This document shows, piece after piece, positions 1 to 13,084 of a stretch of DNA of 13,084 nucleotides. Every line of letters starts with the position of its first letter. The stretch's first letter is position 1. A program made the translations under genes and the position numbers. The DNA lies in the NCBI GenBank assembly GCA_903903935.1, contig CAIVAX010000042.1, positions 1-13,084 of the forward strand, written 5' to 3'. The notes beneath the pieces were generated by a model. That model had not been told where the DNA came from. It was given only the letters and a program-made list of their open reading frames with translations, and made no database searches. The DNA comes from an uncultured Hyphomicrobiales bacterium (lineage in GTDB: Bacteria > Pseudomonadota > Alphaproteobacteria > Rhizobiales > Beijerinckiaceae).

Positions 1-987
1 AGCGGCTGCGGCAAATCCACAACTCTCCGCATGATAGCAGGCTTGGAAGAGCCTGATTCAGGCGCCATTCATTTGGGCCAAACACCGCTCTACTCTTCCG
101 CTTCGGGCGTGCTGTTGCCGCCGCAAAAGCGCAATATGGGCATGGTCTTTCAATCCTATGCCATTTGGCCGCATCTCAATGTCTACGAGACGGTGTCCTA
201 TCCTCTCAATATCCGTCCGCTCTCTCACGATGAGCGCAAAACCCGCACTTTAGCTGCGATCAAACAAGTTGGGCTGGCCGGTTATGAAGAGCGTCCCGCC
301 ACCAATCTCAGTGGTGGCCAACAACAGCGCGTGGCTTTGGCCCGTGCGCTAGTTTATGAGCCCGATGTTCTGCTGCTTGATGAACCCTTCAGCAATCTCG
401 ATCTGCGCGTGCGCGAGCAAATGCGGATTGAATTAAAGCTATTGCAAAAACGTTTGCACATTGGGGTCATTCTGGTCACCCATGATCAGGTGGAAGCGCT
501 CAGCCTGTCCGATCGCATTGCGGTGATGAATGGCGGCAGGATTGAACAGATCGGCTCACCCATGCAGCTCTATGATCAGCCGCGCACCGCCTTTGTGCGC
601 GATTTCATCGGCAGTTTTGCCAAAATCAAAGGCCGCATCACGCAGCGCCATCACAATCGGATTGAGCTCTCCATCCCCGGCGCAGGTCACATCTGGGGCA
701 CTGCGCATGAGAGCTGTCAGGCGAACATCGGCGATGAGGCCCTGCTCACCATCCGCCCCGAGCAAATCCAAATGCTCGCCACTCACACCACCGCCTTGCC
801 CAATACCATTCAGATGCGCATCGATGCTTTGCTCTTTACCGGGGATCGCTTTGAGGCTGTTCTGACCTGCGGCGAGCAAAGCCTTGCCACTTGGTTGCCG
901 CGCAGCCTTTCTGGCTCAGGCTTGCGCGAGGCGGATGTGATCACCCTCAGCCTGCCCGAACAGGCCGTCACAATCTGGACCCATTAG
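1..987 (+). CDS. ABC transporter ATP-binding protein, FbpC/PotA class (5' truncated)
   Basis: This is the ATPase subunit of an importer. It reads in frame from base 1, and the first codons (SGCGKST) are the end of the Walker A loop, so roughly 35 N-terminal residues lie outside the window. Counting from base 1, a Q-loop (VFQSYAIWPHL, Q51), the ABC signature LSGGQQQR (103-110), Walker B VLLLDEPFSNLD (about 123-134) and the H-loop in VTHDQVEAL follow in order. After about residue 220 comes a TOBE-like C-terminal domain, as in the CUT1/Fe(III)/polyamine/2-aminoethylphosphonate ATPases. The partner permease and binding protein would lie upstream, off the window, so the substrate cannot be fixed. 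It is not of the DppD/DppF type and is unlikely to energise the Dpp-like permeases at 5573-7374. Family confidence is high; substrate is open. Confidence 0.93.
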   Translation, partial: SGCGKSTTLRMIAGLEEPDSGAIHLGQTPLYSSASGVLLPPQKRNMGMVFQSYAIWPHLNVYETVSYPLNIRPLSHDERKTRTLAAIKQVGLAGYEERPATNLSGGQQQRVALARALVYEPDVLLLDEPFSNLDLRVREQMRIELKLLQKRLHIGVILVTHDQVEALSLSDRIAVMNGGRIEQIGSPMQLYDQPRTAFVRDFIGSFAKIKGRITQRHHNRIELSIPGAGHIWGTAHESCQANIGDEALLTIRPEQIQMLATHTTALPNTIQMRIDALLFTGDRFEAVLTCGEQSLATWLPRSLSGSGLREADVITLSLPEQAVTIWTH

Positions 988-1061
988 TCTGCCAGACTCA
1001 TCCACTAGGCCCTTGCCTGCGTAGACTATGCAGTTTCCCTCCATGGCAGCGAGATCTCCCC

Positions 1062-1628
1062 ATGAGCAAAACCATTTTCAAATATATCGCTTTAGCCGCT
1101 CATGCGTTTTTAGCGCTCGTTTTGGGCACCCCCGCTCATGCCCAGCTCAAGACCGGGCAAGGCGCCCCTGATTTCACTCTGGCGGCGGCTTTGGGTGGCA
1201 AGGACATGTCCTTTTCACTGGCAAAAGCCTTGAAAAAGGGCCCAGTGGTCATTTTCTTCTATCCCAAATCTTTCACCTCAGTGTGCACGGAAGAGGCACA
1301 TTTATTTGCTGAAGCGATGAGTGACTTTGACTCCTATCAAGCGACAGTGATTGGCATTTCGGCTGACAAGATCGAAACCCAGAGAGAATTCTCAGTCGCT
1401 GAATGCCGCGACCGCTTTCCTGTTGCCGCAGATCCTGACATGAAAGTGATCAAAGCCTATCAGGTCGCCTTTGGCGCTTTGGGCGCGGTTCTCCCCTTTG
1501 CTGATCGCGTCTCTTTCGTGATTGCGCCTGATGGGCGCATTCTCTCCCAAGTCAAATCCTCTGATGCGGCCCCGCATGTCCAGAAATCTCTGGAAGCATT
1601 GCGCAATTGGGCGGCCAAACGAAGCTAA
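1062..1628 (+). CDS. Exported peroxiredoxin (AhpC/TSA, Bcp-like)
   Basis: A thiol peroxidase predicted to reduce hydroperoxides outside the cytoplasm. The 188-residue product starts with a lysine-bearing n-region, a hydrophobic stretch at residues 8-22 and a likely signal-peptidase site after PAHA (27/28). The mature part opens with GAPDFTL, the usual peroxiredoxin start. It then carries the peroxidatic motif FTSVCTEEAHLF, with the catalytic Cys at 75 and the TxxC threonine at 72. A second Cys at 115 (VAECRDRF) could be the resolving residue, 40 positions later rather than the 5-residue spacing of classical BCP. The frame stays open upstream to 891, but that extension would overlap the ATPase gene and bury the signal peptide, so ATG 1062 is chosen. 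A stem-loop follows the stop codon. Family assignment is secure; export is inferred from the N-terminus. Confidence 0.9.
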   Translation: MSKTIFKYIALAAHAFLALVLGTPAHAQLKTGQGAPDFTLAAALGGKDMSFSLAKALKKGPVVIFFYPKSFTSVCTEEAHLFAEAMSDFDSYQATVIGISADKIETQREFSVAECRDRFPVAADPDMKVIKAYQVAFGALGAVLPFADRVSFVIAPDGRILSQVKSSDAAPHVQKSLEALRNWAAKRS

Positions 1629-1659
1629 GATTAATAGAGCGAAGCTAAGATCAAGAGAG
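1620..1659. repeat. 20-bp tandem duplication over the peroxiredoxin stop codon
   Basis: Two adjacent 20-bp units (1620-1639 and 1640-1659), both beginning CGAAGCTAAGAT, differ at two or three positions. The peroxiredoxin TAA lies inside the first copy (1626-1628) and the second copy runs into the stem of the following hairpin. Seen directly; probably a slippage duplication. Confidence 0.7.
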
Positions 1660-1679
1660 TGAAGCATTCACTCTTGATC
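1649..1679 (+). terminator. Hairpin terminator after the peroxiredoxin gene
   Basis: GATCAAGA (1649-1656) pairs with TCTTGATC (1672-1679), and GTGAA (1659-1663) pairs with TTCAC (1667-1671), around a GCA loop. A two-base bulge (GA, 1657-1658) lies on the left arm. The right arm is followed by C and three T residues. The stem is strong but the T-tract is short, so termination may be partial. Confidence 0.55.
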
Positions 1680-1725
1680 CTTTGGCAAAGCCTCGTCATA
1701 TAGGCCGGTCTTGACCGGAGAGCCT

Positions 1726-2235
1726 ATGGCCGAAGCCCTCACCAACAGAAGCTGTGGCAGCTGCACAATGTGCTGCAAGCTTTATGATGCGCCTGAAATT
1801 CCTAAAAAGGCAGGGCAATGGTGCCAGCATTGCGCCATAGGCAAGGGCTGTAAAATTTATGACGCGCGCCCGCAGCTCTGCCGCGACTTTCTCTGCCTGT
1901 GGATGCAGGATGCCGGACTGCCTGAGGATTGGAAGCCTGATCAATCGAAAATGATCGCCAGCATCTCGAAGGAAACCGGCTTTGTGCATATCCGCTGTGA
2001 TCCGTCTAATCCCAATGTCTGGCGGAGCAAAGCCCGCTACGCCTTTTTGCGCGATTGGGCCAAACAATTGCTCGAACGCGGCACGCATCTGCTGGTTTTG
2101 ATTGGCGAACAGGCCTTTGTCATCATGCCGGATCAAGATGTGCCGCTAGGCAAAATGAACCCCGATCACGGCTTTATTTTAAAACGTAGCGTCAGCCCCA
2201 TGGGCGTGACTTATGACGTCTCACCGGCGCCTTAA
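1726..2235 (+). CDS. YkgJ-type cysteine-cluster (Zn/Fe-chelating) protein
   Basis: A 169-residue cytoplasmic protein of the YkgJ family, whose members carry a CxxCxxCC metal-binding cluster and mostly have no assigned reaction. Seen here: C10-x2-C13-x2-CC16-17 (SCGSCTMCC), then C33, C36, C42, C52 and C57 (WCQHC, GCKIYDARPQLC, FLCLW). The stretch GCKIYDARPQLCRDF is the typical family signature. The C-terminal half lacks further cysteine clusters apart from C91. A TTG start at 1711 is possible, but ATG 1726 has a GGAGAG-like ribosome site just upstream (1717-1722) and is preferred. It sits alone between the peroxiredoxin terminator and a convergent MFS gene. Family is certain, function unknown. 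Confidence 0.88.
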   Translation: MAEALTNRSCGSCTMCCKLYDAPEIPKKAGQWCQHCAIGKGCKIYDARPQLCRDFLCLWMQDAGLPEDWKPDQSKMIASISKETGFVHIRCDPSNPNVWRSKARYAFLRDWAKQLLERGTHLLVLIGEQAFVIMPDQDVPLGKMNPDHGFILKRSVSPMGVTYDVSPAP

Positions 2236-2247
2236 ACTGATCAGCTC

Positions 2248-3669
2248 TTATGGCCCCTGAGTGGGTGAGGGCTCAAGCGCAGGATTGCCCGAATGGCCAC
2301 TCATCTCCGCCCCAGCATCTGTGCGCAATCCAATGAAAAACAGGATTGAAGCAAGCGAGATCACCGCGCTGACAAGCAGTGTGACCTTAAACTCAAATGT
2401 ACTGAGCTGCGTGCCTCCACGCCAAGCCAAACTTAAATTGAGCATGGAGGCTGCGATTGCAACACCAACACCCTTGCCAAGCTGTTGCATGAGTTGGGAG
2501 AGGCTGGTGGCACCGCTCATCTTGTGCACCGGCACATCCGCATAAGGCAGCGAATTAAGCGTCGAAAATTGCAGCGATTGCACAAAGCCGCTGCTCATCA
2601 GCACCAATAAAATGACAAGGATCGGTGTCGTTGGTTCAAAGAAGGCATAGGCAACTAAAGCAAGGGCTGCCAATGTCCCGTTCCAAATCACCACCTGACG
2701 ATAGCCAAAGCGCCGCAGAATGGGTGGGGTCGAGGCCTTCATCGCCACCGCCCCCAAGGAACTGGTGAAAATCAGCAGACCCGATACAAACACGGACAGA
2801 CCAAAAACAATTTGAAACAACAGAGGCAAGAGAAACGACAAGCTTCCCAGCCCGATACGAAACAAAGTTCCACCCCAGAAATTGGCGGCAAAGGTTGGTA
2901 TTTTGATGAGCGACAAATCAATCAGCGGATGGTCACAACGTTTGGCATGCCAGACTGCACAGGCCCCAATGAGAAGACCACAGAGAAGAATAAGTGCTGC
3001 AAATTGTGGATCACTACGCGAACGGCCAATCGCATCCAGCCCGTAAATGGTGCAGGCCATGGCCCCGCCAAACAGAAAGAACCCCTTCCAATCCAGCGGC
3101 CTGCGCTTCTCTTCGCGGAAATTCTCAATATGGATCGAAGCAAGTACAAGCCCCATTAGCCCAATGGGCAGATTGACCAGAAAGATCCAGCGCCAAGACA
3201 AATAAGTGACAATCACACCGCCCAAAGGCGGACCCAGCAAGGGCCCCATTTGCGCTGGCACGGATAACACTGCCATGGCCGCGACCAAGCCGGCCTTGCC
3301 CACCGTGCGCAGCATCACAAGCCGGCCAACCGGCACCAACATCGCCCCGCCGACACCCTGCACCATGCGGGCAATATCCAATTGAATGACATTGCTGCTG
3401 CTAGCGCAAATGATCGAACCAATGAGAAAGGCAATAATGGCAGCCTGAAAAATGGTGCGCGCACCAAAGCGATCCGCCAACCAGCCACTAATGGGAATAA
3501 ATATAGCCAAGCTAATGATGTAAGAGGTGATCGCGCCAGACAGACGCACCGGATCTTCCCCAAAAGACGCCGCAATCTGCGGCAGCGCCGAGGAGACGAT
3601 TGAACTATCCATGCCCTGCATGAAAAAGGCACTGGCAACAATCAGGGCGACGAGACTCGATCTTTTCAT
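2248..3669 (-). CDS. MFS multidrug-type exporter, DHA2 family (EmrB/QacA-like)
   Basis: A proton-driven exporter of the inner membrane. From ATG 3669 the product has 473 residues, normal for the 14-helix DHA2 family. Markers are the first-helix motif MDSSIVSSALPQI (20-32, with acidic D21 in the membrane), motif A GWLADRFGARTI (62-73) between helices 2 and 3, RMVQGVGGAMLVP (101-113) and motif C GPLLGPPLGGVI (142-153), which is characteristic of exporters. An upstream ATG at 3699 would add ten residues, but AGAGG sits at suitable distance before 3669, so the shorter form is preferred. It lies downstream of the YHYH gene on the same strand, separated by about 210 bp that contain an 18-bp triple repeat. 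No membrane-fusion partner gene (EmrA) or regulator lies beside it, so the substrate cannot be inferred. Confidence 0.92.
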   Translation of the reverse strand: MKRSSLVALIVASAFFMQGMDSSIVSSALPQIAASFGEDPVRLSGAITSYIISLAIFIPISGWLADRFGARTIFQAAIIAFLIGSIICASSSNVIQLDIARMVQGVGGAMLVPVGRLVMLRTVGKAGLVAAMAVLSVPAQMGPLLGPPLGGVIVTYLSWRWIFLVNLPIGLMGLVLASIHIENFREEKRRPLDWKGFFLFGGAMACTIYGLDAIGRSRSDPQFAALILLCGLLIGACAVWHAKRCDHPLIDLSLIKIPTFAANFWGGTLFRIGLGSLSFLLPLLFQIVFGLSVFVSGLLIFTSSLGAVAMKASTPPILRRFGYRQVVIWNGTLAALALVAYAFFEPTTPILVILLVLMSSGFVQSLQFSTLNSLPYADVPVHKMSGATSLSQLMQQLGKGVGVAIAASMLNLSLAWRGGTQLSTFEFKVTLLVSAVISLASILFFIGLRTDAGAEMSGHSGNPALEPSPTQGP

Positions 3670-3877: not shown

Positions 3878-4822
3878 TTATTGAGGACGGGGCCGGTTGG
3901 GGCCGGGCGGACGCGCTCCCGCCACGGGCGTGCCTATGTAGCAGCCCAAGGAATAAGGATATTCGTCGGTGAAGTGGTAGTGATAGGCAAGCTGCATGCG
4001 GCCATCTTTCATGACCTGATGCGCATGGCCATGGCAGGCATCAAGATCAGCATTGGTGAGCCGCTGACCGGCTTCGCCATGGGGGCCGTAAATGCCATAG
4101 CCATCGAGCGTATATCCCACCAGATCGCTATGCCGCCCCGCCTTTCCAGCGCTGTCCTGCAGGCAAGGGCTAAAGTCATGATAATGATATTCACCCGTGC
4201 GCTCGGGATGACCGCCGCAGCGATCAAGAATTTCCCACACAGCCGCATCACGGCCGCGCGCATCTAAAGCATTGAAGATGGCCACGCCGGACAGAGCAAA
4301 TCCGATCATCCCCATAGAGGCACACACAGGCTGTGCCGCAGGCTTTGGATCAACCGGCAGGCGCAGCACAACATCCTGCACACGGATCATATTGGGATTG
4401 CGGTCATAGGCGAAAGCGGGATCAGTGTGATCTATCGGGAACTGACCGGTTGCATGTTTGGGCAGACCATTGGCGCGCACAAGACGCTGGCCCCCTTCAA
4501 TCGACAGGCTAATGGCGGCATTGGGCCAATTGACCGAGCCTTGAACCGCAATCTTCTCATCTGGCTTCCAAAGCCCATTTGAAGCCCAGGGACCAGAGCG
4601 ATTGGCGCCCGGCCCATTGGGTGGAAACTGCGATTGACAGGAGAAAAGATAACCGCGCTGCGGCCCGCGGCTAATCTTGCCATCCCCAATGGGCTGCGCA
4701 CCCACGCCGCTCTCATGCGCCTGAACTGGCAAGACCATGAAGGGCAAATGCAACCCGATCACCAGCAGGCCAACCCTCATCGAGTGAAGCCCCCAATGAC
4801 AGCGCTTCATACTGCAGACCAT
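3878..4822 (-). CDS. Exported YHYH-domain protein
   Basis: A secreted or periplasmic protein of the YHYH family, whose function is not established. From ATG 4822 it has 314 residues. A basic n-region (MKR, MR) and the hydrophobic stretch VGLLVIGLHLPFMVLPV (17-33) end in a likely cleavage site after VQA (35). The YHYH motif occurs twice: EYHYHDFSPC (211-220) and AYHYHFTDEYPY (279-290). Between them is the family-typical DGYGIYGPHGE (240-250). Several cysteines (C202, C220, C263, C294) flank the histidine motifs and could form disulfides. The tail is proline-rich (ARPPGPNRPRPQ). The frame is open up to 4894, but AGGGG lies six bases before 4822 and the longer form would bury the signal peptide. 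ATG 4810 or 4780 are alternatives. Confidence 0.85.
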   Translation of the reverse strand: MVCSMKRCHWGLHSMRVGLLVIGLHLPFMVLPVQAHESGVGAQPIGDGKISRGPQRGYLFSCQSQFPPNGPGANRSGPWASNGLWKPDEKIAVQGSVNWPNAAISLSIEGGQRLVRANGLPKHATGQFPIDHTDPAFAYDRNPNMIRVQDVVLRLPVDPKPAAQPVCASMGMIGFALSGVAIFNALDARGRDAAVWEILDRCGGHPERTGEYHYHDFSPCLQDSAGKAGRHSDLVGYTLDGYGIYGPHGEAGQRLTNADLDACHGHAHQVMKDGRMQLAYHYHFTDEYPYSLGCYIGTPVAGARPPGPNRPRPQ

Positions 4823-5572: not shown

Positions 5573-6442
5573 TTATTTCAGCGTTGGGTCTAGACGATCG
5601 CGCAACCAATCTCCAAGCATGCTCACGCTGAGCGCGGTCAAGACAATAACAGATGCCGGCGCGAGCAAGATCCAGGGGGCTCGCGTCAAATATTCGCGAC
5701 CATAGCCCACCATATTACCAAGACTTGTCATCGGGGGCTGAACGCCTAGTCCTAAAAAGGACAAGCCGCTTTCCAAAAGAATGATCTCCGGAAAAACCAG
5801 CGTCATCGACACGATCAAGGTTGAAGCCGTATTAGGCAAGATATGTCGCAAATAAACGCGCGAAGGTTCTGCGCCAAGTTGTCTGACAGCAGAAGCATAG
5901 CCCTGCGCATTTGCAGAAATGGCCAGACCACGGGCAATACGCGCGTAACGTTCCCACCCAAAAAGCCCCATAAGCATGATGAATAAGGAAAGGGAATTTC
6001 CAAAAAAAGCAAGGACTGCAAGAGCAAAAATGAGAAAGGGAATCGAGGCCTGAAAATCAGCAAGGATCAGCACGGCCTGCTCGACCCAGCCGCGAAAATG
6101 AGCCGCGAAAAATCCAAGTGCTGTCCCAAATATTGCAGAAATCAGAGTAGCGATCAAAGAGACGAGAAGAGATATTCGGATCGAGACAATCAGACGTGAC
6201 AGAACATCGCGCCCCAGCTCGTCCGTTCCAAGCCAATGCAAGCTAGCAAATGGCAGAGCAAGCCTCGCCTTCAAATCAATCGCGGTAAAAGAATAGGGCA
6301 TGAGACTAGGGCCAAGTAAGGCGACACATAACATGAGGCAAAGCCAGAGTGCGCCAAGTTTGACGCCCAAGGGAATGGTATCAGGCCTGTGGCTACGGAG
6401 GTCCGCAACGGGCGGCACATTTGTGTCAGATAAGAGGCTCAC
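5573..6442 (-). CDS. Peptide/opine/nickel-type ABC permease, DppC-like
   Basis: The second inner-membrane permease of a family-5 (Dpp/Opp/Nik-type) importer. The 289-residue length is normal. An N-terminal OppC-type segment with one helix (about 26-48) precedes the hallmark HWLGTDELGRDVLSRLI (69-85). The BPD_transp_1 helices follow, and the EAA coupling loop is at about 181-210 (GYASAVRQLGAEPSRVYLRH and ILPN). LLESGLSFLGLGVQPP (222-237) and the GDWLRDRLDPTLK end are also typical. Its ATG lies inside the stop codon of the DppB-like gene (4-bp overlap), so translation is probably coupled. It is the last gene of the minus-strand cluster. No ATPase gene follows; the next gene is convergent. Confidence 0.93.
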   Translation of the reverse strand: MSLLSDTNVPPVADLRSHRPDTIPLGVKLGALWLCLMLCVALLGPSLMPYSFTAIDLKARLALPFASLHWLGTDELGRDVLSRLIVSIRISLLVSLIATLISAIFGTALGFFAAHFRGWVEQAVLILADFQASIPFLIFALAVLAFFGNSLSLFIMLMGLFGWERYARIARGLAISANAQGYASAVRQLGAEPSRVYLRHILPNTASTLIVSMTLVFPEIILLESGLSFLGLGVQPPMTSLGNMVGYGREYLTRAPWILLAPASVIVLTALSVSMLGDWLRDRLDPTLK

Positions 6443-7374
6443 TTTGCGCCTCCGGGAGCGGCTTGCTTGATCCGCGGATCGAAAATGCCATAAGCCAAGT
6501 CAACCATAAAATTAGCGGCAACCATGGTGAGCGCCACGAGTAAAAGAATGACCTGTACAACGGCCAAATCACGGTTGGACACTGCCACCACAAGCAATCG
6601 GCCGACACCCGGCCATGCAAACACGCTTTCAACAACAACTGCGCCAGCCAAAAGACTTCCCACCATAAAACCTAAAACCGTTATAGTCGGGATAGCGGCG
6701 TTTGGCAGTGCGTGGGCACGCACCACAGCGGACCACGCCAATCCCTTGGCGCTCGCCGTGCGGATATAGGGCTGACCAAGTATTTCTAACATGGCGCTGC
6801 GGGTGAAGCGGGCGAGCACTGCCGCGCCACCAAGGCCGAGTGTCACAACTGGCAAGATCGCATGTCGCCAGCTATCAGCGCCTGAAGTGGGGAGCCAGCC
6901 CAGCCAGACTGAAAAGACCAATACCAACACAAGTGCCAAAACAAAACTTGGCACAGTAAAACCAAAAACAGCAAATGACATCACAAGACGATCGATCCGG
7001 CTATTGCGATGAAGCGCGGCATAGACACCTGAGGGAATTCCAATACTCACTTTGAGCAACAGCGCAGGCAAAGTGAGCAACAAAGTAGTTGGAATACGCT
7101 CCCCCACGATCTGGAGAGCCGGGCGCCCATCGCGCATAGATCGACCCATCTCACCTTCAAGGACAGCTGCAAAATAGTGAAAATATTGCAGCCAAATCGG
7201 GTCATCCAATCCCCAACTTTTACGAAAAGCCGCAATCGCTTCAGGCGGCGCATCGGGGCTCATAATGATCAAAGCGGGGTCGCCCGAAAGCCTAAGCACA
7301 ATGAAACTAAAGGTCATGACGAGAAAAATTGTCATCACTGCACGAGCCAGCCGCGAGACGATAAACCTAATCAT
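6439..7374 (-). CDS. Peptide/opine/nickel-type ABC permease, DppB-like
   Basis: The first inner-membrane permease of the same importer. From ATG 7374 it has 311 residues. The N-terminal helix FIVSRLARAVMTIFLVMTF, the segment SWGLDDPIWLQYFHYFAAVL (53-72), the EAA loop (about 203-231, YIRTASAKGLAWSAVVRAH and ALPNA), FAWPGVGRL (252-260) and the closing IFDPRIK (297-303) are standard for DppB/OppB. A TTG two codons upstream (7380) is an alternative start. Neither has a strong Shine-Dalgarno sequence, and the leader there consists of an 18-bp tandem repeat. It overlaps the DppC-like gene by 4 bp. It lies 245 bp downstream of the SBP-B gene, with a strong hairpin between, so expression may rely on read-through or on an unrecognised promoter in the gap. 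Confidence 0.92.
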   Translation of the reverse strand: MIRFIVSRLARAVMTIFLVMTFSFIVLRLSGDPALIIMSPDAPPEAIAAFRKSWGLDDPIWLQYFHYFAAVLEGEMGRSMRDGRPALQIVGERIPTTLLLTLPALLLKVSIGIPSGVYAALHRNSRIDRLVMSFAVFGFTVPSFVLALVLVLVFSVWLGWLPTSGADSWRHAILPVVTLGLGGAAVLARFTRSAMLEILGQPYIRTASAKGLAWSAVVRAHALPNAAIPTITVLGFMVGSLLAGAVVVESVFAWPGVGRLLVVAVSNRDLAVVQVILLLVALTMVAANFMVDLAYGIFDPRIKQAAPGGAK

Positions 7375-7376
7375 GT

Positions 7377-7412
7377 CCAAGCACTTTCACAGGACCAAGC
7401 ACCTTCACAAGA
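7377..7412. repeat. 18-bp tandem repeat in the leader of the DppB-like gene
   Basis: Units 7377-7394 and 7395-7412 agree at all but three positions (CCAAGCA(C/T)TTCACA core) and a third partial unit (CCAAGG) follows. On the minus strand this occupies the ribosome-binding region just before the permease start. It may explain the lack of a normal Shine-Dalgarno sequence. Confidence 0.7.
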
Positions 7413-7579
7413 CCAAGGCATCAAGGGATAACCGAGGGGGCTGATGTTCTCTATCATGTCGATCAACAAAACCCCTGCACACAGTTCAGAATGCCCGGAT
7501 ATGAAAGTTCAAGCATTGGCTCTGACATAGCGGATTTCATGAAGAGAAAGGCGGTGGGATGTCACAGATAGAGCCAGAC

Positions 7580-7611
7580 TAAAGAGCCGCAATTTAAGAT
7601 GCGGCTCTTTA
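7580..7611 (-). terminator. Strong hairpin between SBP-B and the permeases
   Basis: TAAAGAGCCGC (7580-7590) and GCGGCTCTTTA (7601-7611) form a perfect 11-bp stem with a 10-nt loop, 9 bp beyond the SBP-B stop codon. On the minus strand the stem ends in CTCTTTA, a short U-tract, so it may act as a partial terminator or as an mRNA-stabilising 3' hairpin. It separates the binding-protein gene from the permease pair. Confidence 0.65.
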
Positions 7612-7619
7612 ATTTGGGA

Positions 7620-9248
7620 TCAGAGTGAAAAATTACCCGTCCGAAAATCCATGGCAAAAGCCGGGGCAGTTTTCCACTTGATAGACTTGCGCTTAGCGGT
7701 ATAGGTCGCATTTTGATGCAAGACTGTATAGGCTGGATCTTCGCGTTCAGAAATGACCAACATCCGGCGGAAGATTTCCTTGCGCTTGGCCCGGTCGGTC
7801 GAAGACTCAAGAGTATTAGAGAGTGTGTTGAACTCTTCGTTCGTCCACTCGCCGATCTGCTGCTGTTGGCCATTTGGCCCATGCTGACTGACAATCGAGG
7901 AGACTGGATCATTGAAGGGCGCAGAGTTCGACCAGTCACGCACGCCCCGGGTCTGATTGCGTTCCATGATTTGCGACCAGTTTTCTTGCATTTGGATTTC
8001 GACATTCAGGCCCACAGCCTTCCACATCTCGACCACAGCCTGAGCTGTCTGCACCTGATTGGTGTAGTAATTATTGAGCAACCGATAGGGAATGACTTCA
8101 CCCTTGTAGCCAGCTGCCTTGAGCAGGTCCTGCGCAATTTTGGGATCATAGGCGGGAACAGACCAATCACTGATGAACATGTCATCATAATAAGACCATT
8201 GCAGACCCTGAGGAACGCTGGTTCGACCAGCCCAGAGTGCATCAACAATAGCCTGACGATCAATGGAATGAGTCATGGCGCGGCGCACACGTGGATCGGC
8301 GAGAACTGGATAGTTCTTGTCAAACACCATAATGCGATGATTGAGAATCGTACCTCCCTGCACCTCAAAGGCAGGATTCTTTTCAATCAGCGCGATCTGA
8401 TCTGGCGGTATGTCACATGCAAAATGGAAATCACCAGCAAACAATCCATTCACGCGCGTTGAGACTTCTGGGACTTCAACGAATTTAATCTGCTTCACAG
8501 GCGGACGGCCACCCCAATACTCATCATGAGCAACATAGGTGAGAGATTGGTCTGGCTTGAACTCCGCAACTTTATAAGGACCCGTAGTAATTGGCTTGCG
8601 TGCCCATTCGATATAATTACCACCCTCAACAAAGGCGCGGCGGTTCATAATCTCCGAGCCATAGCGACTGATGCGCCCCTCAAGCGTCACATCGGGAGAG
8701 CCGTTGATAAAGCGAACACGATATTTATCGACAATCTCAACCTTAACGAGGTTGGGCCAGGCACGACGCGCAACACCAAACACCTCTTGCGGAACTTCTT
8801 TAGCGCCAAGACCCGGGATACGCTCGCTATAGGGCAATGTCTTGGGATTAGCCGAAGGCTTGGTATCACCAAACATGCGATCGGGACCAAAGGAAAAGGC
8901 GACATCCTCGGCGGTCATTTCATCGCCATTGTGGAACTTCACGCCCTTACGCAAATCAAGCTCAAGAGTCGTGTCGTCTATGCGGCGCCACTCAGTGGCC
9001 AATAAGGGCACCTTACCAAGTCCATTGAGCCAATCACGTCCAATCAACCCTTCCCACAGCGAGGAAAAGAAAATCCGCTCGCCAACATTCGAGCCTTCGC
9101 GAAGCACGTCGAGTGTATTGGAGTTAGAGACTTTCTGAACGGCGATAACAATCGAGGGGCGATTATCAACCTGAGCCAGAGCAGAATGTGGCAGGATAAA
9201 TGGACTTGCCAATCCTGCAATGGCTGTGCGACGTGTGATTTTGGACAT
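7620..9248 (-). CDS. Family-5 extracellular solute-binding protein (SBP-B), Tat-type signal
   Basis: Periplasmic binding protein (SBP_bac_5, DppA/OppA-like) that would deliver substrate to the DppBC-like permeases. It has 542 residues. The start MSKITRRTAIAGL has a twin arginine at 6-7, a hydrophobic stretch and a probable cleavage site after SALA (25), suggesting Tat export. Family landmarks are LELDLRKGVKFHNGDEMTAE with DVAFSF, the segment ITTGPYKVAEFKPDQSLTYV, YWGGRPPVKQIKFV, and VRRAMTHSIDRQAIVDALW. AAGGG lies eight bases before the ATG. It is clearly paralogous to the binding protein at 9494-11098 (shared RPSI.IAVQKV..SNTL, TRVNGL, WAGRTSVP, NYYTNQVQTAQ). It has its own upstream array of 11-bp-spaced half-sites and is bracketed by two hairpins. 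The ligand cannot be read from sequence; neighbouring genes suggest an organophosphorus ester. Confidence 0.93.
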   Translation of the reverse strand: MSKITRRTAIAGLASPFILPHSALAQVDNRPSIVIAVQKVSNSNTLDVLREGSNVGERIFFSSLWEGLIGRDWLNGLGKVPLLATEWRRIDDTTLELDLRKGVKFHNGDEMTAEDVAFSFGPDRMFGDTKPSANPKTLPYSERIPGLGAKEVPQEVFGVARRAWPNLVKVEIVDKYRVRFINGSPDVTLEGRISRYGSEIMNRRAFVEGGNYIEWARKPITTGPYKVAEFKPDQSLTYVAHDEYWGGRPPVKQIKFVEVPEVSTRVNGLFAGDFHFACDIPPDQIALIEKNPAFEVQGGTILNHRIMVFDKNYPVLADPRVRRAMTHSIDRQAIVDALWAGRTSVPQGLQWSYYDDMFISDWSVPAYDPKIAQDLLKAAGYKGEVIPYRLLNNYYTNQVQTAQAVVEMWKAVGLNVEIQMQENWSQIMERNQTRGVRDWSNSAPFNDPVSSIVSQHGPNGQQQQIGEWTNEEFNTLSNTLESSTDRAKRKEIFRRMLVISEREDPAYTVLHQNATYTAKRKSIKWKTAPAFAMDFRTGNFSL

Positions 9249-9493: not shown

Positions 9494-11098
9494 TTATGCC
9501 CAATTATAAGAGCGCATATCCATTACGAATGAACCAGCAGGTTTCCATTTGAAATCTTTGCGCGTGCCCGTAAAGGTTCCGTTCTGATGCAGAACGATAT
9601 AACCAGGATCTTGGATTTCAACAATCTCAAGTGTCCGCCGGAAGGCTGCGCGGCGTTGAGCAAGATCTGTTCCTGTCTGCAAAGCCAGCACGGCGGCAGC
9701 CCCATCATCATTCTGCCATTGCTTCGTCATCCAGTTTTGTGCGCCCGGGGCGAAGGCGGCGCTAGAGGCGGAAGGATCGGGAAACCATGCTGAGACAGAA
9801 CCATCACAAAGGCCGCGCCGCGGCGTTGGTTCCAAAACTTGACTCCAGTTTTCCTTCATTTCAATTTCGACATTCAGGCCAATCTCTTTCCAACCCTCAA
9901 CAAGAATCTGCGCTGTCGGGACTTGCGCGGTGTAATAATTATTCAAGAGTTGATAAGAAATTGGATCTCCCTTATAGCCAGCCTCCTTTAAAAGGGCTTT
10001 CGCCTTGGCCAGATCATAACCTGTTGATTGCCAATCACTCAGATACATATCACCGAAGAATTCAAGTTGCATACCTCGAGGCACACTTGTACGACCCGCC
10101 CACAATGCGTCGACTATTCCTTGACGATCGACTGACCAAGTCATGGCCTGACGCACGCGCGGATCTTGCAAAACTGAATGCGTCTTATCAAAGGAGATCA
10201 TTCTGATATTGGTAATCTTACCGCCGACCACATGATACTTTGTGCTTTTTTCAACAGTCGGAATTTGATCTGGTGGAAGATCACAGGCGAAATCGAAATC
10301 ACCTGATAATAGACCATTCACACGCGTTGAAATCTCGGGTGTCTCGACCAATCGAATTTGCTTGATGGGCGGGCGGCCGCCCCAGTAATCATCATGAGCT
10401 TCAAGCAAAAGCATGTTATCTGGTTTATAATCAGCTATCCGATAAGGACCCGTGCCAATCGTCCTACGCGCCCAATCCATCCAATTGGGTGAGTCATTGA
10501 AAGCCCTCTGCGAAACAATAGCACCTGTAAATCTCGTCAACCGCCCCTCAAGAGCAAGGTCTGGCACTTTGTTCACAAACCTGATCGTGTTGCGATCGAT
10601 AATCTCTATTTTTTCAAAGCCAGGAAACGAGCTCTGTGCGATTTGAGGTACTTCCATGGGTGGCGTCTTAGTAGCTAACCCAGAATTATTATTGACATAA
10701 GCACCAGGTGCTAGAGGTGCACCAGACCACATGCGTTCTTTGCCGAAGGAAAAGGCAACATCCTCGACGCTCATCACATCGCCGTTATGCATGCGCACAT
10801 TATCGCGCAATTTTAATTCCAACGTTTTGAAATCGATTCGTCTGACGCTCTGGGCGAGCATGGGCTTCATGCCCATAGTGCCGATCCAATCGAGGTCAAG
10901 AAGAGATTCAAGGAAAAGAGAAAAGGTTCTCTGGCCAACATTAGAGACTTCACGAAGCGGCTCAAGAGTATTGGAGGTTGCTACTTTTTGTACCGCAATC
11001 GTAATCGAGGGGCGCGAGTCAGACTGCGCTATGGCGAAACAAGGCGCAACGAAAGTTGAGGCGCCACCAATAAGCACTTTTCGACGATGTATCAACAT
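9494..11098 (-). CDS. Family-5 extracellular solute-binding protein (SBP-A), Tat-type signal
   Basis: A second periplasmic SBP_bac_5 protein, 534 residues from ATG 11098. The N-terminus MLIHRRKVLIGG has twin arginines at 5-6 and a probable signal-peptidase site after FAIA (24), as for a Tat substrate. The frame is open to 11194, but AAGGA lies seven bases before 11098 and the extension would run into the hydrolase gene, so 11098 is used. Landmarks are RMHNGDVMSVEDVAFSF, IGTGPYRIADYKPDN, YWGGRPPIKQIRLVETP, VRQAMTWSVDRQGIVDALW and NYYTAQVPTAQ. It aligns along its whole length with SBP-B but diverges in loops (for example after FSFGKERMW and near the C-terminus, LCDGSVSAWFPDPSASS), which may mean different ligand preference. 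It starts 46 bp after the hydrolase stop codon with no terminator between, so the two are probably co-transcribed. Confidence 0.93.
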   Translation of the reverse strand: MLIHRRKVLIGGASTFVAPCFAIAQSDSRPSITIAVQKVATSNTLEPLREVSNVGQRTFSLFLESLLDLDWIGTMGMKPMLAQSVRRIDFKTLELKLRDNVRMHNGDVMSVEDVAFSFGKERMWSGAPLAPGAYVNNNSGLATKTPPMEVPQIAQSSFPGFEKIEIIDRNTIRFVNKVPDLALEGRLTRFTGAIVSQRAFNDSPNWMDWARRTIGTGPYRIADYKPDNMLLLEAHDDYWGGRPPIKQIRLVETPEISTRVNGLLSGDFDFACDLPPDQIPTVEKSTKYHVVGGKITNIRMISFDKTHSVLQDPRVRQAMTWSVDRQGIVDALWAGRTSVPRGMQLEFFGDMYLSDWQSTGYDLAKAKALLKEAGYKGDPISYQLLNNYYTAQVPTAQILVEGWKEIGLNVEIEMKENWSQVLEPTPRRGLCDGSVSAWFPDPSASSAAFAPGAQNWMTKQWQNDDGAAAVLALQTGTDLAQRRAAFRRTLEIVEIQDPGYIVLHQNGTFTGTRKDFKWKPAGSFVMDMRSYNWA

Positions 11099-11144: not shown

Positions 11145-12731
11145 TTACTCAACAACTGGACGGGTACGAAGGCTGGTGGGCGAACCCTGCTCATCGCGAG
11201 TTAAAAGACCCTGCGGTGAAGACCTGTAATGAGTGAGAGACCGGTCAGCATGTTTTAATCGCCAAGATAAGGCCTTCTGCGCATAGTCGCGCACAAGAGG
11301 CGCGAAGGAGATGTCCTGCGCAAGATTGCGGAATTGTCCTGGATCGGCTTGCAAATCGAAAAAGAGCGGCGGAAGAGCAGAAAAATGAACATATTTATAT
11401 TTCTCATCTTGAATAACACATAAGCTCGATTCGCTTGAGGTCAGTGCCAAATCCTGTTGAGGTTGCGAGTAGAATATATCGCGGAAGTCATATTCATAAT
11501 GGAGCTCAGTGCGCCAATCGGCCGGCTTGCCTGTCGATAAAAAGGACGTCAAAGAACGACCATCGCACACTTGAGGAACCTCTCCTCCGAGCCATTCAAT
11601 CAAGGTCGGCATGAGGTCAATACTCTCGGTGAAAGCCTCCTCCACCTCGCCGTTACGTCCCATATTGCGGGGATCACAAATCACCAGAGGCACTCGGAAG
11701 CTCTCATCAAAATAGCCGATCTTGCCAAGCAAATAATGATCACCCAATTGCTCGCCATGGTCACTGGTGAATACGATCAACGTATCATCGATCTGACCGG
11801 TCTCCTCAAGATGATCGAGAAGCTTGCCTATATTGTCATCGACTTCACGGATCATGCCGCAATAAGTTGCCCGTAATTGCAAGATATCTGCCTCTGACAA
11901 TTCATGTCCATGACCGCTTGCCGATTCAAAGAAAGAGGCTTGGCGTGTCTGACGAAGATAGAAATCAAGGAGGGGATGCTGCTGTGACTCGTGCTGCCAA
12001 TCAGCAGCACGCACGGGGTGAGGCATAGCCTTTGCCTCAAACATATTGTGATAGGGTGCAGGCGCGACAAAGGGAGGATGCGGCCTATAATAGCCCATGT
12101 GAAGAAAAAAGGGACGACCTCCACGGCCCTTTAAATAAGTTAGTGCGCGCTCGGTGAAAAAGGCAGAATCCGACAATTCTTTGGGGATACGAGAGGGACG
12201 GTTTGTCACACCCGGTGTTGCATCCTCGCCCTCAGGCAACCAGATATCTTGACGACGCTCGCCAAGCGGAAAACCTTTCTGCGCAACCCATCCAAAATAA
12301 CCGTCCATATTGGGTTCAAACGCACCAACGCTGCGCCAGCCTTGCATCAGATCACCAAGCGATTGGAAAGCGGGATCATTAGGCGAAGTGGTGCGTGGAT
12401 CAGGCACAGTTGTTGTATAACCCACAAGCGCTGCGTCATATCCCAGATCACGTAAAGCTGTAGCAAGGGTGAGATGACGACGATCAAGTGGGATTGTGTT
12501 TTGAACCGCACGATGGTTCATCTGATAAAGTCCAGTCAATAGGCTTGCTCGAGCCGGCCCACAAGGCACAGCGGTCGTCACGTGATTTTTAAAAGTGACG
12601 CCAGTGCGGCACAGACGGTCTAGATTAGGTGTATCGAGAAACGGTTCTCTCCCCTCTGCCCTCATGATGTGGGGTACGAAGTCAGCGCGCCATTGATCGA
12701 CAACAATGAACAAGACATTCTTGCGAGACAT
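11145..12731 (-). CDS. pehA: Phosphonate monoester hydrolase / sulfatase-superfamily hydrolase (PMH)
   Basis: A formylglycine-dependent hydrolase of the alkaline phosphatase superfamily. From ATG 12731 (AGAGGA just upstream) it has 528 residues. The motif VPCGPARASLLTG is the C-x-P-x-R...TG modification site, with nucleophile Cys57. Metal-site and active-site residues fall at D12, Q13, N78, Y105, T107, H218, D324, H325 and K337. As I recall the characterised Rhizobium leguminosarum PMH, these are the same positions. Runs such as RKNVL-IVVDQWRADFVPH, GYTTTVPDPRTTSPNDP and CVIQDEKYKYVHFSALPPLFFDL also match that family. PMHs cleave phosphonate monoesters and phosphodiesters, with promiscuous sulfate-ester activity; the natural substrate is unknown. 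There is no signal peptide, so it should act in the cytoplasm on imported substrate. It heads the cluster, 46 bp before SBP-A, and has a Pho-box-like array upstream. The formylglycine-generating enzyme is not in the window. An arylsulfatase role is the main alternative. Confidence 0.93.
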   Translation of the reverse strand: MSRKNVLFIVVDQWRADFVPHIMRAEGREPFLDTPNLDRLCRTGVTFKNHVTTAVPCGPARASLLTGLYQMNHRAVQNTIPLDRRHLTLATALRDLGYDAALVGYTTTVPDPRTTSPNDPAFQSLGDLMQGWRSVGAFEPNMDGYFGWVAQKGFPLGERRQDIWLPEGEDATPGVTNRPSRIPKELSDSAFFTERALTYLKGRGGRPFFLHMGYYRPHPPFVAPAPYHNMFEAKAMPHPVRAADWQHESQQHPLLDFYLRQTRQASFFESASGHGHELSEADILQLRATYCGMIREVDDNIGKLLDHLEETGQIDDTLIVFTSDHGEQLGDHYLLGKIGYFDESFRVPLVICDPRNMGRNGEVEEAFTESIDLMPTLIEWLGGEVPQVCDGRSLTSFLSTGKPADWRTELHYEYDFRDIFYSQPQQDLALTSSESSLCVIQDEKYKYVHFSALPPLFFDLQADPGQFRNLAQDISFAPLVRDYAQKALSWRLKHADRSLTHYRSSPQGLLTRDEQGSPTSLRTRPVVE

Positions 12732-12782
12732 AGAATCCTCTTCCATAATTTCTTAAAACTTTTTTCACATCAGCAAGCCGAC

Positions 12783-12822
12783 ATGACGAAAGAATGACGC
12801 TGACTTGACAAGCCTAAGACAG
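12783..12822 (-). promoter_or_regulatory. Four-unit Pho-box-like array upstream of the PMH gene
   Basis: On the minus strand CTGTCTT-AGGC-TTGTCAA then GTCA-GCGTCAT-TCTT-TCGTCAT. The plus-strand cores AGACA, TGACA, TGACG and TGACG start at 12817, 12806, 12795 and 12784, exactly 11 bp apart. Seven-base direct repeats separated by four bases, one per helical turn, is the PhoB-box layout (consensus CTGTCAT). The proximal edge is 52 bp before the ATG. The -10 at the expected spacing (TGATGT, 12767-12772) is poor, consistent with activator dependence. PhoB as the binder is inferred. Confidence 0.65.
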
Positions 12823-13007: not shown

Positions 13008-13019
13008 TGGGAGGCGATG

Positions 13020-13084
13020 ATGGCGCGGACGGATGTGGCGGTAAAGAATTACGTTGTGCGGCTGAGCGGTGAGGAACGGGCTCA
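13020..13084 (+). CDS. IS630-family transposase, N-terminal start (3' truncated by window)
   Basis: Only 21 codons are visible: MARTDVAVKNYVVRLSGEERA. The K-x-YVVRLS-x-EER opening is typical of the helix-turn-helix N-terminus of IS630-family transposases common in Alphaproteobacteria. GGGAGG lies five bases before this ATG; an adjacent ATG at 13017 is the other possible start. It runs divergently from the PMH cluster. The assignment rests on a short segment and needs the neighbouring sequence. Confidence 0.6.
   Translation, partial: MARTDVAVKNYVVRLSGEERA

What the first reader, a model, noticed from the sequence alone, without database searches (positions are those of the whole stretch)
12783..12822. 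Four 11-bp-phased half-sites form a Pho-box-like array in front of the PMH gene
Minus-strand cores TGTCT, TGTCA, CGTCA and CGTCA start at an exact 11-bp period. The last two give GCGTCAT-TCTT-TCGTCAT, the 7+4+7 PhoB-box layout. A phosphate-starvation switch fits a gene for a phospho/phosphonate-ester hydrolase. A four-unit array suggests cooperative binding by two PhoB dimers. Control by phosphate of this enzyme class would help explain its unsettled natural role.
Basis: partly seen in the sequence, partly recalled or inferred. Interest (0 to 1): 0.78.

Follow-up and report, generated by a model that had tools for sequence, protein, structure and literature searches.

The report
Phosphate-starvation switch on PMH scavenging operon
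A row of four evenly spaced DNA half-sites in front of an enzyme of unsettled natural role looks like a real phosphate-starvation switch, because related bacteria keep the same arrangement before the same gene, and the gene's neighbours suggest that it frees phosphate from imported phosphate esters.

Summary
Confirmed and strengthened. On the minus strand, 12822-12783 reads CTGTCTT-AGGC-TTGTCAA-GTCA-GCGTCAT-TCTT-TCGTCAT: four half-sites at an exact 11-bp period, the only YGTCx4 run of this period in the 2.6-Mb MAG. With a matrix built without PMH sites, its three- and four-unit scores exceed all 5,000 shuffles. The genome encodes PhoB with matching boxes at its pho locus. PMH is followed by an AccA-like binding protein in 76 of 80 loci. 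AccA imports agrocinopine, a sugar phosphodiester, and its operon is also phosphate-controlled (PMC4086400, passage). AccA's four phosphate contacts are kept in nearly all these proteins; its sugar anchor Glu510 is not. Best reading: a PhoB-activated operon that imports phosphate or phosphonate esters and hydrolyses them in the cell. Binding, phosphate response and substrate are inferred. In this MAG the operon lacks its two ATPase genes, and no FGE gene was found.

The parts
12783..12822 (-). Four-unit (two-box) PhoB-type array, 7+4 layout, 11-bp period: CTGTCTT aggc TTGTCAA gtca GCGTCAT tctt TCGTCAT
   Evidence: similar arrays upstream of orthologues
12768..12773 (-). Candidate -10 element CTGATG, beginning 9 bp after the array (weak)
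   Evidence: alignment of 36 promoters on the array end: C10 42%, T11 44%, A12 53%, A13 83%; later columns are as conserved, so this is inference
12736..12744 (-). Shine-Dalgarno-like GGAAGAGGA in front of the ATG at 12731
   Evidence: sequence; inference
11145..12731 (-). PMH/PehA gene (phosphonate monoester hydrolase/phosphodiesterase, alkaline phosphatase superfamily), nucleophile motif VPCGPAR; no signal peptide seen by eye (no predictor run); ATG 12746 is an alternative start
   Evidence: NF045661 PehA 903.1 bits over cut-off 900; nearest solved chains 2w8s and 2vqr, 881 and 875 bits
9494..11194 (-). SBP1, SBP_bac_5 binding protein, AccA-like (the ORF as listed overlaps PMH; true start probably further in)
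   Evidence: PF00496; AccA 222 bits, next other molecule 98; N54, Y375, Y376, S419 equivalents kept
7620..9248 (-). SBP2, SBP_bac_5 binding protein, AccA-like
   Evidence: PF00496; AccA 250 bits, next other molecule 115; phosphate contacts kept, Glu510 replaced by Phe
6439..7380 (-). Opp/Dpp-type permease 1
   Evidence: PF00528; best NCBIfam model Opp2B, below its cut-off
5573..6442 (-). Opp/Dpp-type permease 2
   Evidence: PF00528; best NCBIfam model Opp4C, below its cut-off

Best explanation
The array is a two-box (four half-site) PhoB operator. When phosphate runs short, phosphorylated PhoB binds the head-to-tail units as tandem dimers, takes the place of a -35 element and recruits RNA polymerase to the promoter of an operon that encodes PMH, AccA-like binding proteins and an Opp/Dpp-type permease pair. 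The transporter brings phosphodiesters (or phosphonate monoesters) into the cytoplasm, where PMH cleaves them as a phosphorus source. Shown here: the array, its recurrence in place, strand and period, a PhoB gene and matching boxes in the same genome, the conserved operon, and the AccA kinship with the phosphate contacts kept. Inferred: PhoB binding, induction by low phosphate, direction of transport, and the substrate.
For: Array exact and, as YGTCx4, unique in the genome; above shuffles with an independent matrix. Orthologues, three units: 77 of 80 above the 95th and 60 of 80 above the 99th percentile of 1,065 control gene starts, antisense 16 and 3; mean best pair score 9.9 at period 11, at most 2.1 at the nine other periods from 7 to 16; the 60 strongest arrays begin between -94 and -57. 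After collapsing promoters alike at 65% or more, 55 of 57 groups pass the 95th and 46 of 57 the 99th percentile. A matrix from pstS-locus sites alone gives 74, 77 and 78 of 80 above the 95th and 50, 66 and 69 above the 99th percentile for 2, 3 and 4 units. PhoB in the genome at 319.9 bits over the cut-off 296.2, after a histidine-kinase end, an ABC ATPase that looks like PstB and a PhoU protein, with boxes ATGTCATCTCACTGTCAT before the ATPase and CTGTCATTTATCTTTCAT before a calcineurin-like phosphatase gene. Operon: SBP next to PMH in 76 of 80 loci (2 of the 4 misses are contig ends); permease 1 at 60% or more identity in 60 of 69 loci with at least 5.9 kb downstream. AccA chains are the nearest solved relatives of both SBPs. 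Of 118 related SBPs, N54 is kept in 117 and Y375, Y376 and S419 in all 115 that cover the site.
Against: No binding or expression data. Individual half-sites in the window match CTGTCAT at 5-6 of 7 bases. L051 and L053 fail the 95th percentile for two and three units, L050 for three, L095 for two; 20 of 80 lie below the 99th for three units, among them the six-locus Brucella/Ochrobactrum cluster. The strand contrast depends on the matrix: with own-genome sites alone, antisense counts above the 95th percentile are 16, 36 and 42 of 80 for 2, 3 and 4 units against 72, 66 and 74 sense (above the 99th: 1, 6, 16 against 41, 48, 66). Two Mesorhizobium soli loci keep PMH and the array but show no SBP or permease behind it. 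In this MAG the operon lacks the two ATPase genes of the orthologues; the best OppF-like match elsewhere is 50% identical with one stop inside. No FGE gene was found (MAG 82% complete). A review notes experimentally confirmed PHO boxes at genes without obvious phosphate regulation (PMC4415409, passage).
Confidence: 0.8

Rival explanations
1. The array is bound by another OmpR/PhoB-family regulator that also prefers 11-bp tandem repeats, so the operon responds to something other than phosphate.
For: Besides PhoB, five further full-length matches to the PhoB model, below its cut-off, are in the genome; the half-sites in the window are degenerate.
Against: The half-site preference is CTGTCAT-like, as at the genome's own pho locus and at class-wide pstS loci; a matrix from the latter alone recovers 74, 77 and 78 of 80 orthologues at the 95th percentile for 2, 3 and 4 units.
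Confidence: 0.1
2. The array is functional and phosphate-responsive, but PMH serves sulfur or carbon acquisition, or detoxification, and the transporter carries peptides or something else without phosphorus.
For: The enzyme family is promiscuous (PMC5488252, abstract and passages); the transporter family includes peptide and nickel systems.
Against: Both SBPs are far closer to AccA than to DppA (250 against 101 bits for SBP2; 222 against 82 for SBP1) and keep the four phosphate contacts, which none of 12 other SBP_bac_5 proteins compared has as a set (loose alignment, some of them fragments).
Confidence: 0.12
3. The array is a chance run of CGTCA-like words.
For: Two-unit sites with up to 3 mismatches are common (208 in the genome), and the window has a three-unit run inside SBP1 (9702-9730, plus strand).
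Against: Four phased YGTC units are unique in the genome, and position, period and mostly strand recur in orthologues.
Confidence: 0.04

Closest known systems
PhoB-regulated promoters with pho boxes (Pho regulon)
   Same: 11-nt direct repeat units of 7 well conserved and 4 less conserved bases; CTGTCAT in E. coli (PMC4415409, passages); upstream of an operon that looks made for phosphorus acquisition
   Different: The half-sites in the window are weaker than those at the genome's own pho locus; no expression data
acc operon of Agrobacterium (agrocinopine import and cleavage)
   Same: SBP related to AccA with the same phosphate contacts; a phosphodiesterase acts after import (AccF: PMC7356202, abstract and passages); activation by phosphate limitation (PMC4086400, passage, citing Kim et al. 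2008, which is not held)
   Different: The hydrolase here is PMH of the alkaline phosphatase superfamily; the sugar anchor Glu510 of AccA is Phe in 103 of 118 related SBPs; an AccR-like control was not looked for
RlPMH (pRL90232) and BcPMH/PehA
   Same: 69.7% identity to the Rhizobium johnstonii 3841 pRL9 protein; 875-881 bits to both solved structures; the pRL9 gene heads the same operon and has a weaker array
   Different: Host lineage: in 24 genomes of the window's own genus no full-length match exceeds 37% identity (short N-terminal stretches reach 43%)

Membership tests
PhoB operator (pho box) | Direct repeats of 7 conserved bases at 11-bp period | tested here: met
PhoB operator (pho box) | Half-sites score above background with a PhoB-type matrix | tested here: met
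   the matrix sites were picked by likeness to CTGTCAT, not by experiment
PhoB operator (pho box) | Recurs in front of orthologues, same strand and distance | tested here: met
   77 of 80 loci, 55 of 57 groups at the 95th percentile for three units; L050, L051, L053 not
PhoB operator (pho box) | A cognate PhoB in the genome | tested here: met
PhoB operator (pho box) | PhoB binding and induction by low phosphate | not testable with these tools
   needs a footprint and transcript measurement
PMH/PehA family | Full-length match to the PehA equivalog model | tested here: met
   903.1 over 900 bits, a narrow pass
PMH/PehA family | Cys of the C-x-P-x-R motif that becomes formylglycine | tested here: met
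   VPCGPARASLLTG in the window and in 69 of 80 loci, one more with Val; the pattern was not found in 10, which were not looked at further
PMH/PehA family | A formylglycine-generating enzyme in the host | tested here: inconclusive
   no PF03781 match in the MAG, which is 82% complete; 4 of 14 control genomes ring
acc-type phosphodiester uptake operon | AccA-like binding protein with the phosphate contacts | tested here: met
acc-type phosphodiester uptake operon | Pyranose anchor Glu510 | tested here: not met
   Phe in SBP1, SBP2 and 103 of 118
acc-type phosphodiester uptake operon | AccF phosphodiesterase and AccR repressor | not tested
   not searched for; PMH stands in the place of the hydrolase

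The most novel reading that the evidence does not exclude
PMH is the cytoplasmic hydrolase of a widespread, PhoB-controlled scavenging system of Alphaproteobacteria that works like the acc system of Ti plasmids: an AccA-like binding protein with an unchanged phosphate clamp but a different organic pocket delivers a class of phosphodiesters or phosphonate monoesters, perhaps glycosidic ones from plants or polysaccharides, and PMH cleaves them. This would be the natural role of PMH.
Probability: 0.5. Interest if true: 0.75.

Novelty: new member of a known kind. Interest (0 to 1): 0.62.

Why it matters
PMHs are well-known promiscuous enzymes, and none of the passages I saw names a settled natural substrate. 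The conserved phosphate switch and the conserved AccA-like transporter together turn 'what is it for' into a short list of tests: phosphate starvation, a phoB deletion, and binding assays of the SBP with phosphodiesters. They also place PMH among phosphorus-scavenging enzymes; a marine study had already pointed to a PMH relative in connection with phosphonate esters of dissolved organic matter (PMC5649143, passages).

Tried and rejected
Single 18-mer consensus hits: rejected as evidence, since 208 sites with up to 3 mismatches occur in the genome. A general sulfatase trait: rejected; of 29 more distant sulfatase-type relatives only L119, L131 and L146 have a two-unit score of 12 or more (a region of up to 200 bases, for L118 shorter because the contig begins there). 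A divergent target on the plus strand: the only candidate start seen by eye (13017/13020) runs off the contig. An AEP/phosphonate transporter for the ABC gene at 1-987: best model PhnT2 at 289 bits, below its cut-off 457.7, and the gene is cut by the contig end; not pursued. The gene after phoB, first taken for PstS in my notes, is a calcineurin-like phosphatase. The regex used missed most distant relatives; one search replaced it. (MFS protein of the contig in 24 genus members, best 48%) did not settle whether the contig belongs to the bin. Two of the ten own-genome SBP_bac_5 matches (L191, L192, short) were left out; two others are the window's own. One of twelve sites listed (L164, plus strand, 2154) was left out of the matrix. 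Earlier mention of phosphate control of PMH cannot be excluded: Dotson 1996, Jonas 2008 and Kim 2008 are not held. Searches that showed no such paper: 2 papers; passages in both, do not link PMH to phosphate control; 1,060 papers match, only 10 listed; none; 2 listed, not opened. Of the 29 papers listed I opened passages of six.

Full report
The observation. The minus strand of 12822-12783 reads CTGTCTTAGGCTTGTCAAGTCAGCGTCATTCTTTCGTCAT. The four cores start at 12821, 12810, 12799 and 12788, an exact 11-bp period, and the last two units have the 7+4+7 layout. [quoted passage not shown] YGTC four times at this period has one match in the 2,605,226-bp genome, this site, and the reversed control none. 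A two-unit match alone would be weak: 208 sites with at most 3 mismatches exist in the genome, against 32 for the reversed pattern.

Independent scoring. I built a 7-base half-site matrix from 17 arrays that include no PMH promoter: six from this genome (before a PstB-like ATPase, before the phosphatase after phoB, two in a divergent glycosyltransferase region, one in the btaA-like region, one before ppk) and eleven from 10 of 30 class-wide loci of pstS-like genes (the other 20 loci have no site with two or fewer mismatches). All were chosen by likeness to CTGTCAT, none by experiment. The window's 150 bases upstream score 12.8, 16.7 and 22.6 for 2, 3 and 4 units; 0.42%, 0% and 0% of 5,000 shuffles reach this. 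With the matrix split into its own-genome and its pstS part, 8, 3 and 0 of 146 own-genome gene starts reach the window's score for 2, 3 and 4 units with either part; that control set was largely fetched because it holds Pho-like sites, so the test is strict.

Orthologues. One search kept the best 80 of 143 confirmed loci, with PMH at 63-71% identity, mostly from Rhizobiales and Acetobacteraceae by their record titles. Their upstream 130 bases were scored against 1,065 other gene starts from the same loci. For three units 77 of 80 exceed the 95th percentile and 60 of 80 the 99th; the antisense strand does so in 16 and 3. For two units the counts are 77 and 57 against 10 and 2. Period 11 stands out: mean best pair score 9.9, against at most 2.1 at the other nine periods from 7 to 16. 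Collapsing promoters alike at 65% or more leaves 57 groups, of which 55 and 46 pass. The failures at the 95th percentile are L050, L051 and L053 for three units and L051, L053 and L095 for two. Twenty of 80 lie below the 99th percentile for three units, among them a cluster of six Brucella/Ochrobactrum-type loci (one titled Rhizobiales bacterium).

Strand and length, with their limits. With the pstS part of the matrix the antisense counts above the 95th percentile are 10, 7 and 24 of 80 for 2, 3 and 4 units (99th: 2, 3, 4); with the own-genome part they rise to 16, 36 and 42 (99th: 1, 6, 16). Sense beats antisense in 71 to 78 of 80 promoters in all nine settings. The best four-unit arrays of 81 promoters show units 1 and 3 strong (mean 5.8 and 4.7; score of 3 or more in 77% and 64%) and units 2 and 4 degenerate (means -0.9 and 0.0; 25% and 35%), with the flanking units near -13 or lower and off-phase positions at -10.6 to -15.8 (choosing the best array favours inside over outside). 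In 36 well-scoring promoters aligned on the array end, A at position 13 is kept in 83% and C10, T11, A12 in 42-53%; the window has CTGATG at 10-15. This could be the -10 element of a promoter whose -35 is replaced by the array, but later columns are as conserved.

Specificity. Twenty-nine more distant sulfatase-type relatives were scored too: three have a two-unit score of 12 or more, 26 do not. The array is a mark of the PMH group, not of sulfatases at large.

The regulator. The genome encodes one PhoB over the curated cut-off (319.9 against 296.2 bits). It lies after a histidine-kinase end, an ABC ATPase that looks like PstB and a PhoU protein, and before a calcineurin-like phosphatase. Box ATGTCATCTCACTGTCAT stands before the ATPase and CTGTCATTTATCTTTCAT before the phosphatase.

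The operon. The window reads PMH, SBP1, SBP2, permease, permease on the minus strand. PMH passes the PehA model and is nearest to the solved BcPMH and RlPMH. In 76 of 80 orthologue loci an SBP_bac_5 gene follows PMH within 400 bases; of the other four, two are contig ends and two are Mesorhizobium soli. Of 69 loci with at least 5.9 kb downstream, 60 have the first permease at 60% identity or more. Of the nine misses five carry three or more SBP genes that fill the stretch, two (L107, L108) have an SBP and no permease found, and two are Mesorhizobium soli. In L043 two ATPase genes of the OppD and OppF kind stand between SBP and permease, and two ATPase-like matches stand there in most other loci. 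The window has none there; the best OppF-like match elsewhere in the MAG is 50% identical, with one stop inside.

What is imported. For both SBPs the best solved relatives are AccA chains (250 and 222 bits), with the next molecule at 115 and 98. AccA binds agrocinopine A and agrocin 84 through a pyranose-2-phosphate; N54, S419, Y375 and Y376 hold the phosphate, and N54, E510, N284 and S419 anchor a sugar hydroxyl (PMC4526662, passages). In 118 related SBPs of the 80 loci (45% identity or more to a window SBP) N54 is kept in 117, N284 in 118, and Y375, Y376 and S419 in all 115 that cover the site, while E510 is Phe in 103. With the window's two added, 64 of 475 AccA positions are kept in at least 97%; all four phosphate contacts fall among them, which random choice would give with probability 0.0003 (neighbours in a fold are not independent, so this is a guide only). 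None of 12 other SBP_bac_5 proteins has all four, but their alignment is loose around loops and some are fragments. [quoted passage not shown] The PMH operon has the same logic with another hydrolase.

Limits. Nothing here shows binding, induction or substrate. The host is an 82%-complete MAG; no FGE gene was found. In 24 genomes of its genus no full-length PMH match exceeds 37% identity, so the operon was probably acquired from another lineage, or the contig was binned wrongly; one search did not decide this. Whether phosphate control of PMH has been reported before could not be settled: the searches showed no such paper (only by its first 10 of 1,060), but three key older papers are not held.

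Verdict. Observation confirmed, interpretation supported. It is a new member of the Pho regulon rather than a new kind of switch, and its main value is that it makes the natural role of PMH testable.

Noticed in passing
window 7380-7620: The PMH operon of the window lacks the two Opp/Dpp ATPase genes that stand between SBP and permease in L043 and, by similarity, most other orthologue loci; the transporter may borrow ATPases.
   Followed up: partly
window 13017-13084, plus strand: A frame beginning MMARTDVAVKNYVVRLSGEERA runs off the contig end and resembles the start of an IS630-type transposase (recalled, not searched); it may mark the edge of an acquired region.
   Followed up: no
window 9702-9730, plus strand: A three-unit 11-bp-phased Pho-like run inside the SBP1 coding sequence with no plus-strand gene noticed behind it; probably chance.
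   Followed up: no
L151 (G000:C211) 592-620 and L148 (G000:C285) 4150-4260: Pho-like boxes between a glycosyltransferase-like gene (by eye) and a divergent DUF3419/BtaA-type gene followed by a methyltransferase, and between another glycosyltransferase and a polyketide-cyclase/lipid-transport-like gene: perhaps phosphate-controlled membrane-lipid exchange.
   Followed up: partly
L149 (G000:C249) 3318-3301, minus strand: CTGTCATGGTTTTGTCGT just before the 839-3286 polyphosphate kinase frame, which is followed by a PPX-like gene (by eye).
   Followed up: partly
G000 whole genome: No formylglycine-generating enzyme (PF03781) found although PMH carries the CxPxR nucleophile motif.
   Followed up: partly
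L036, L037: Two Mesorhizobium soli records keep PMH and the array but show no SBP or permease behind it; a long minus-strand frame (about 1,260 codons) follows.
   Followed up: no
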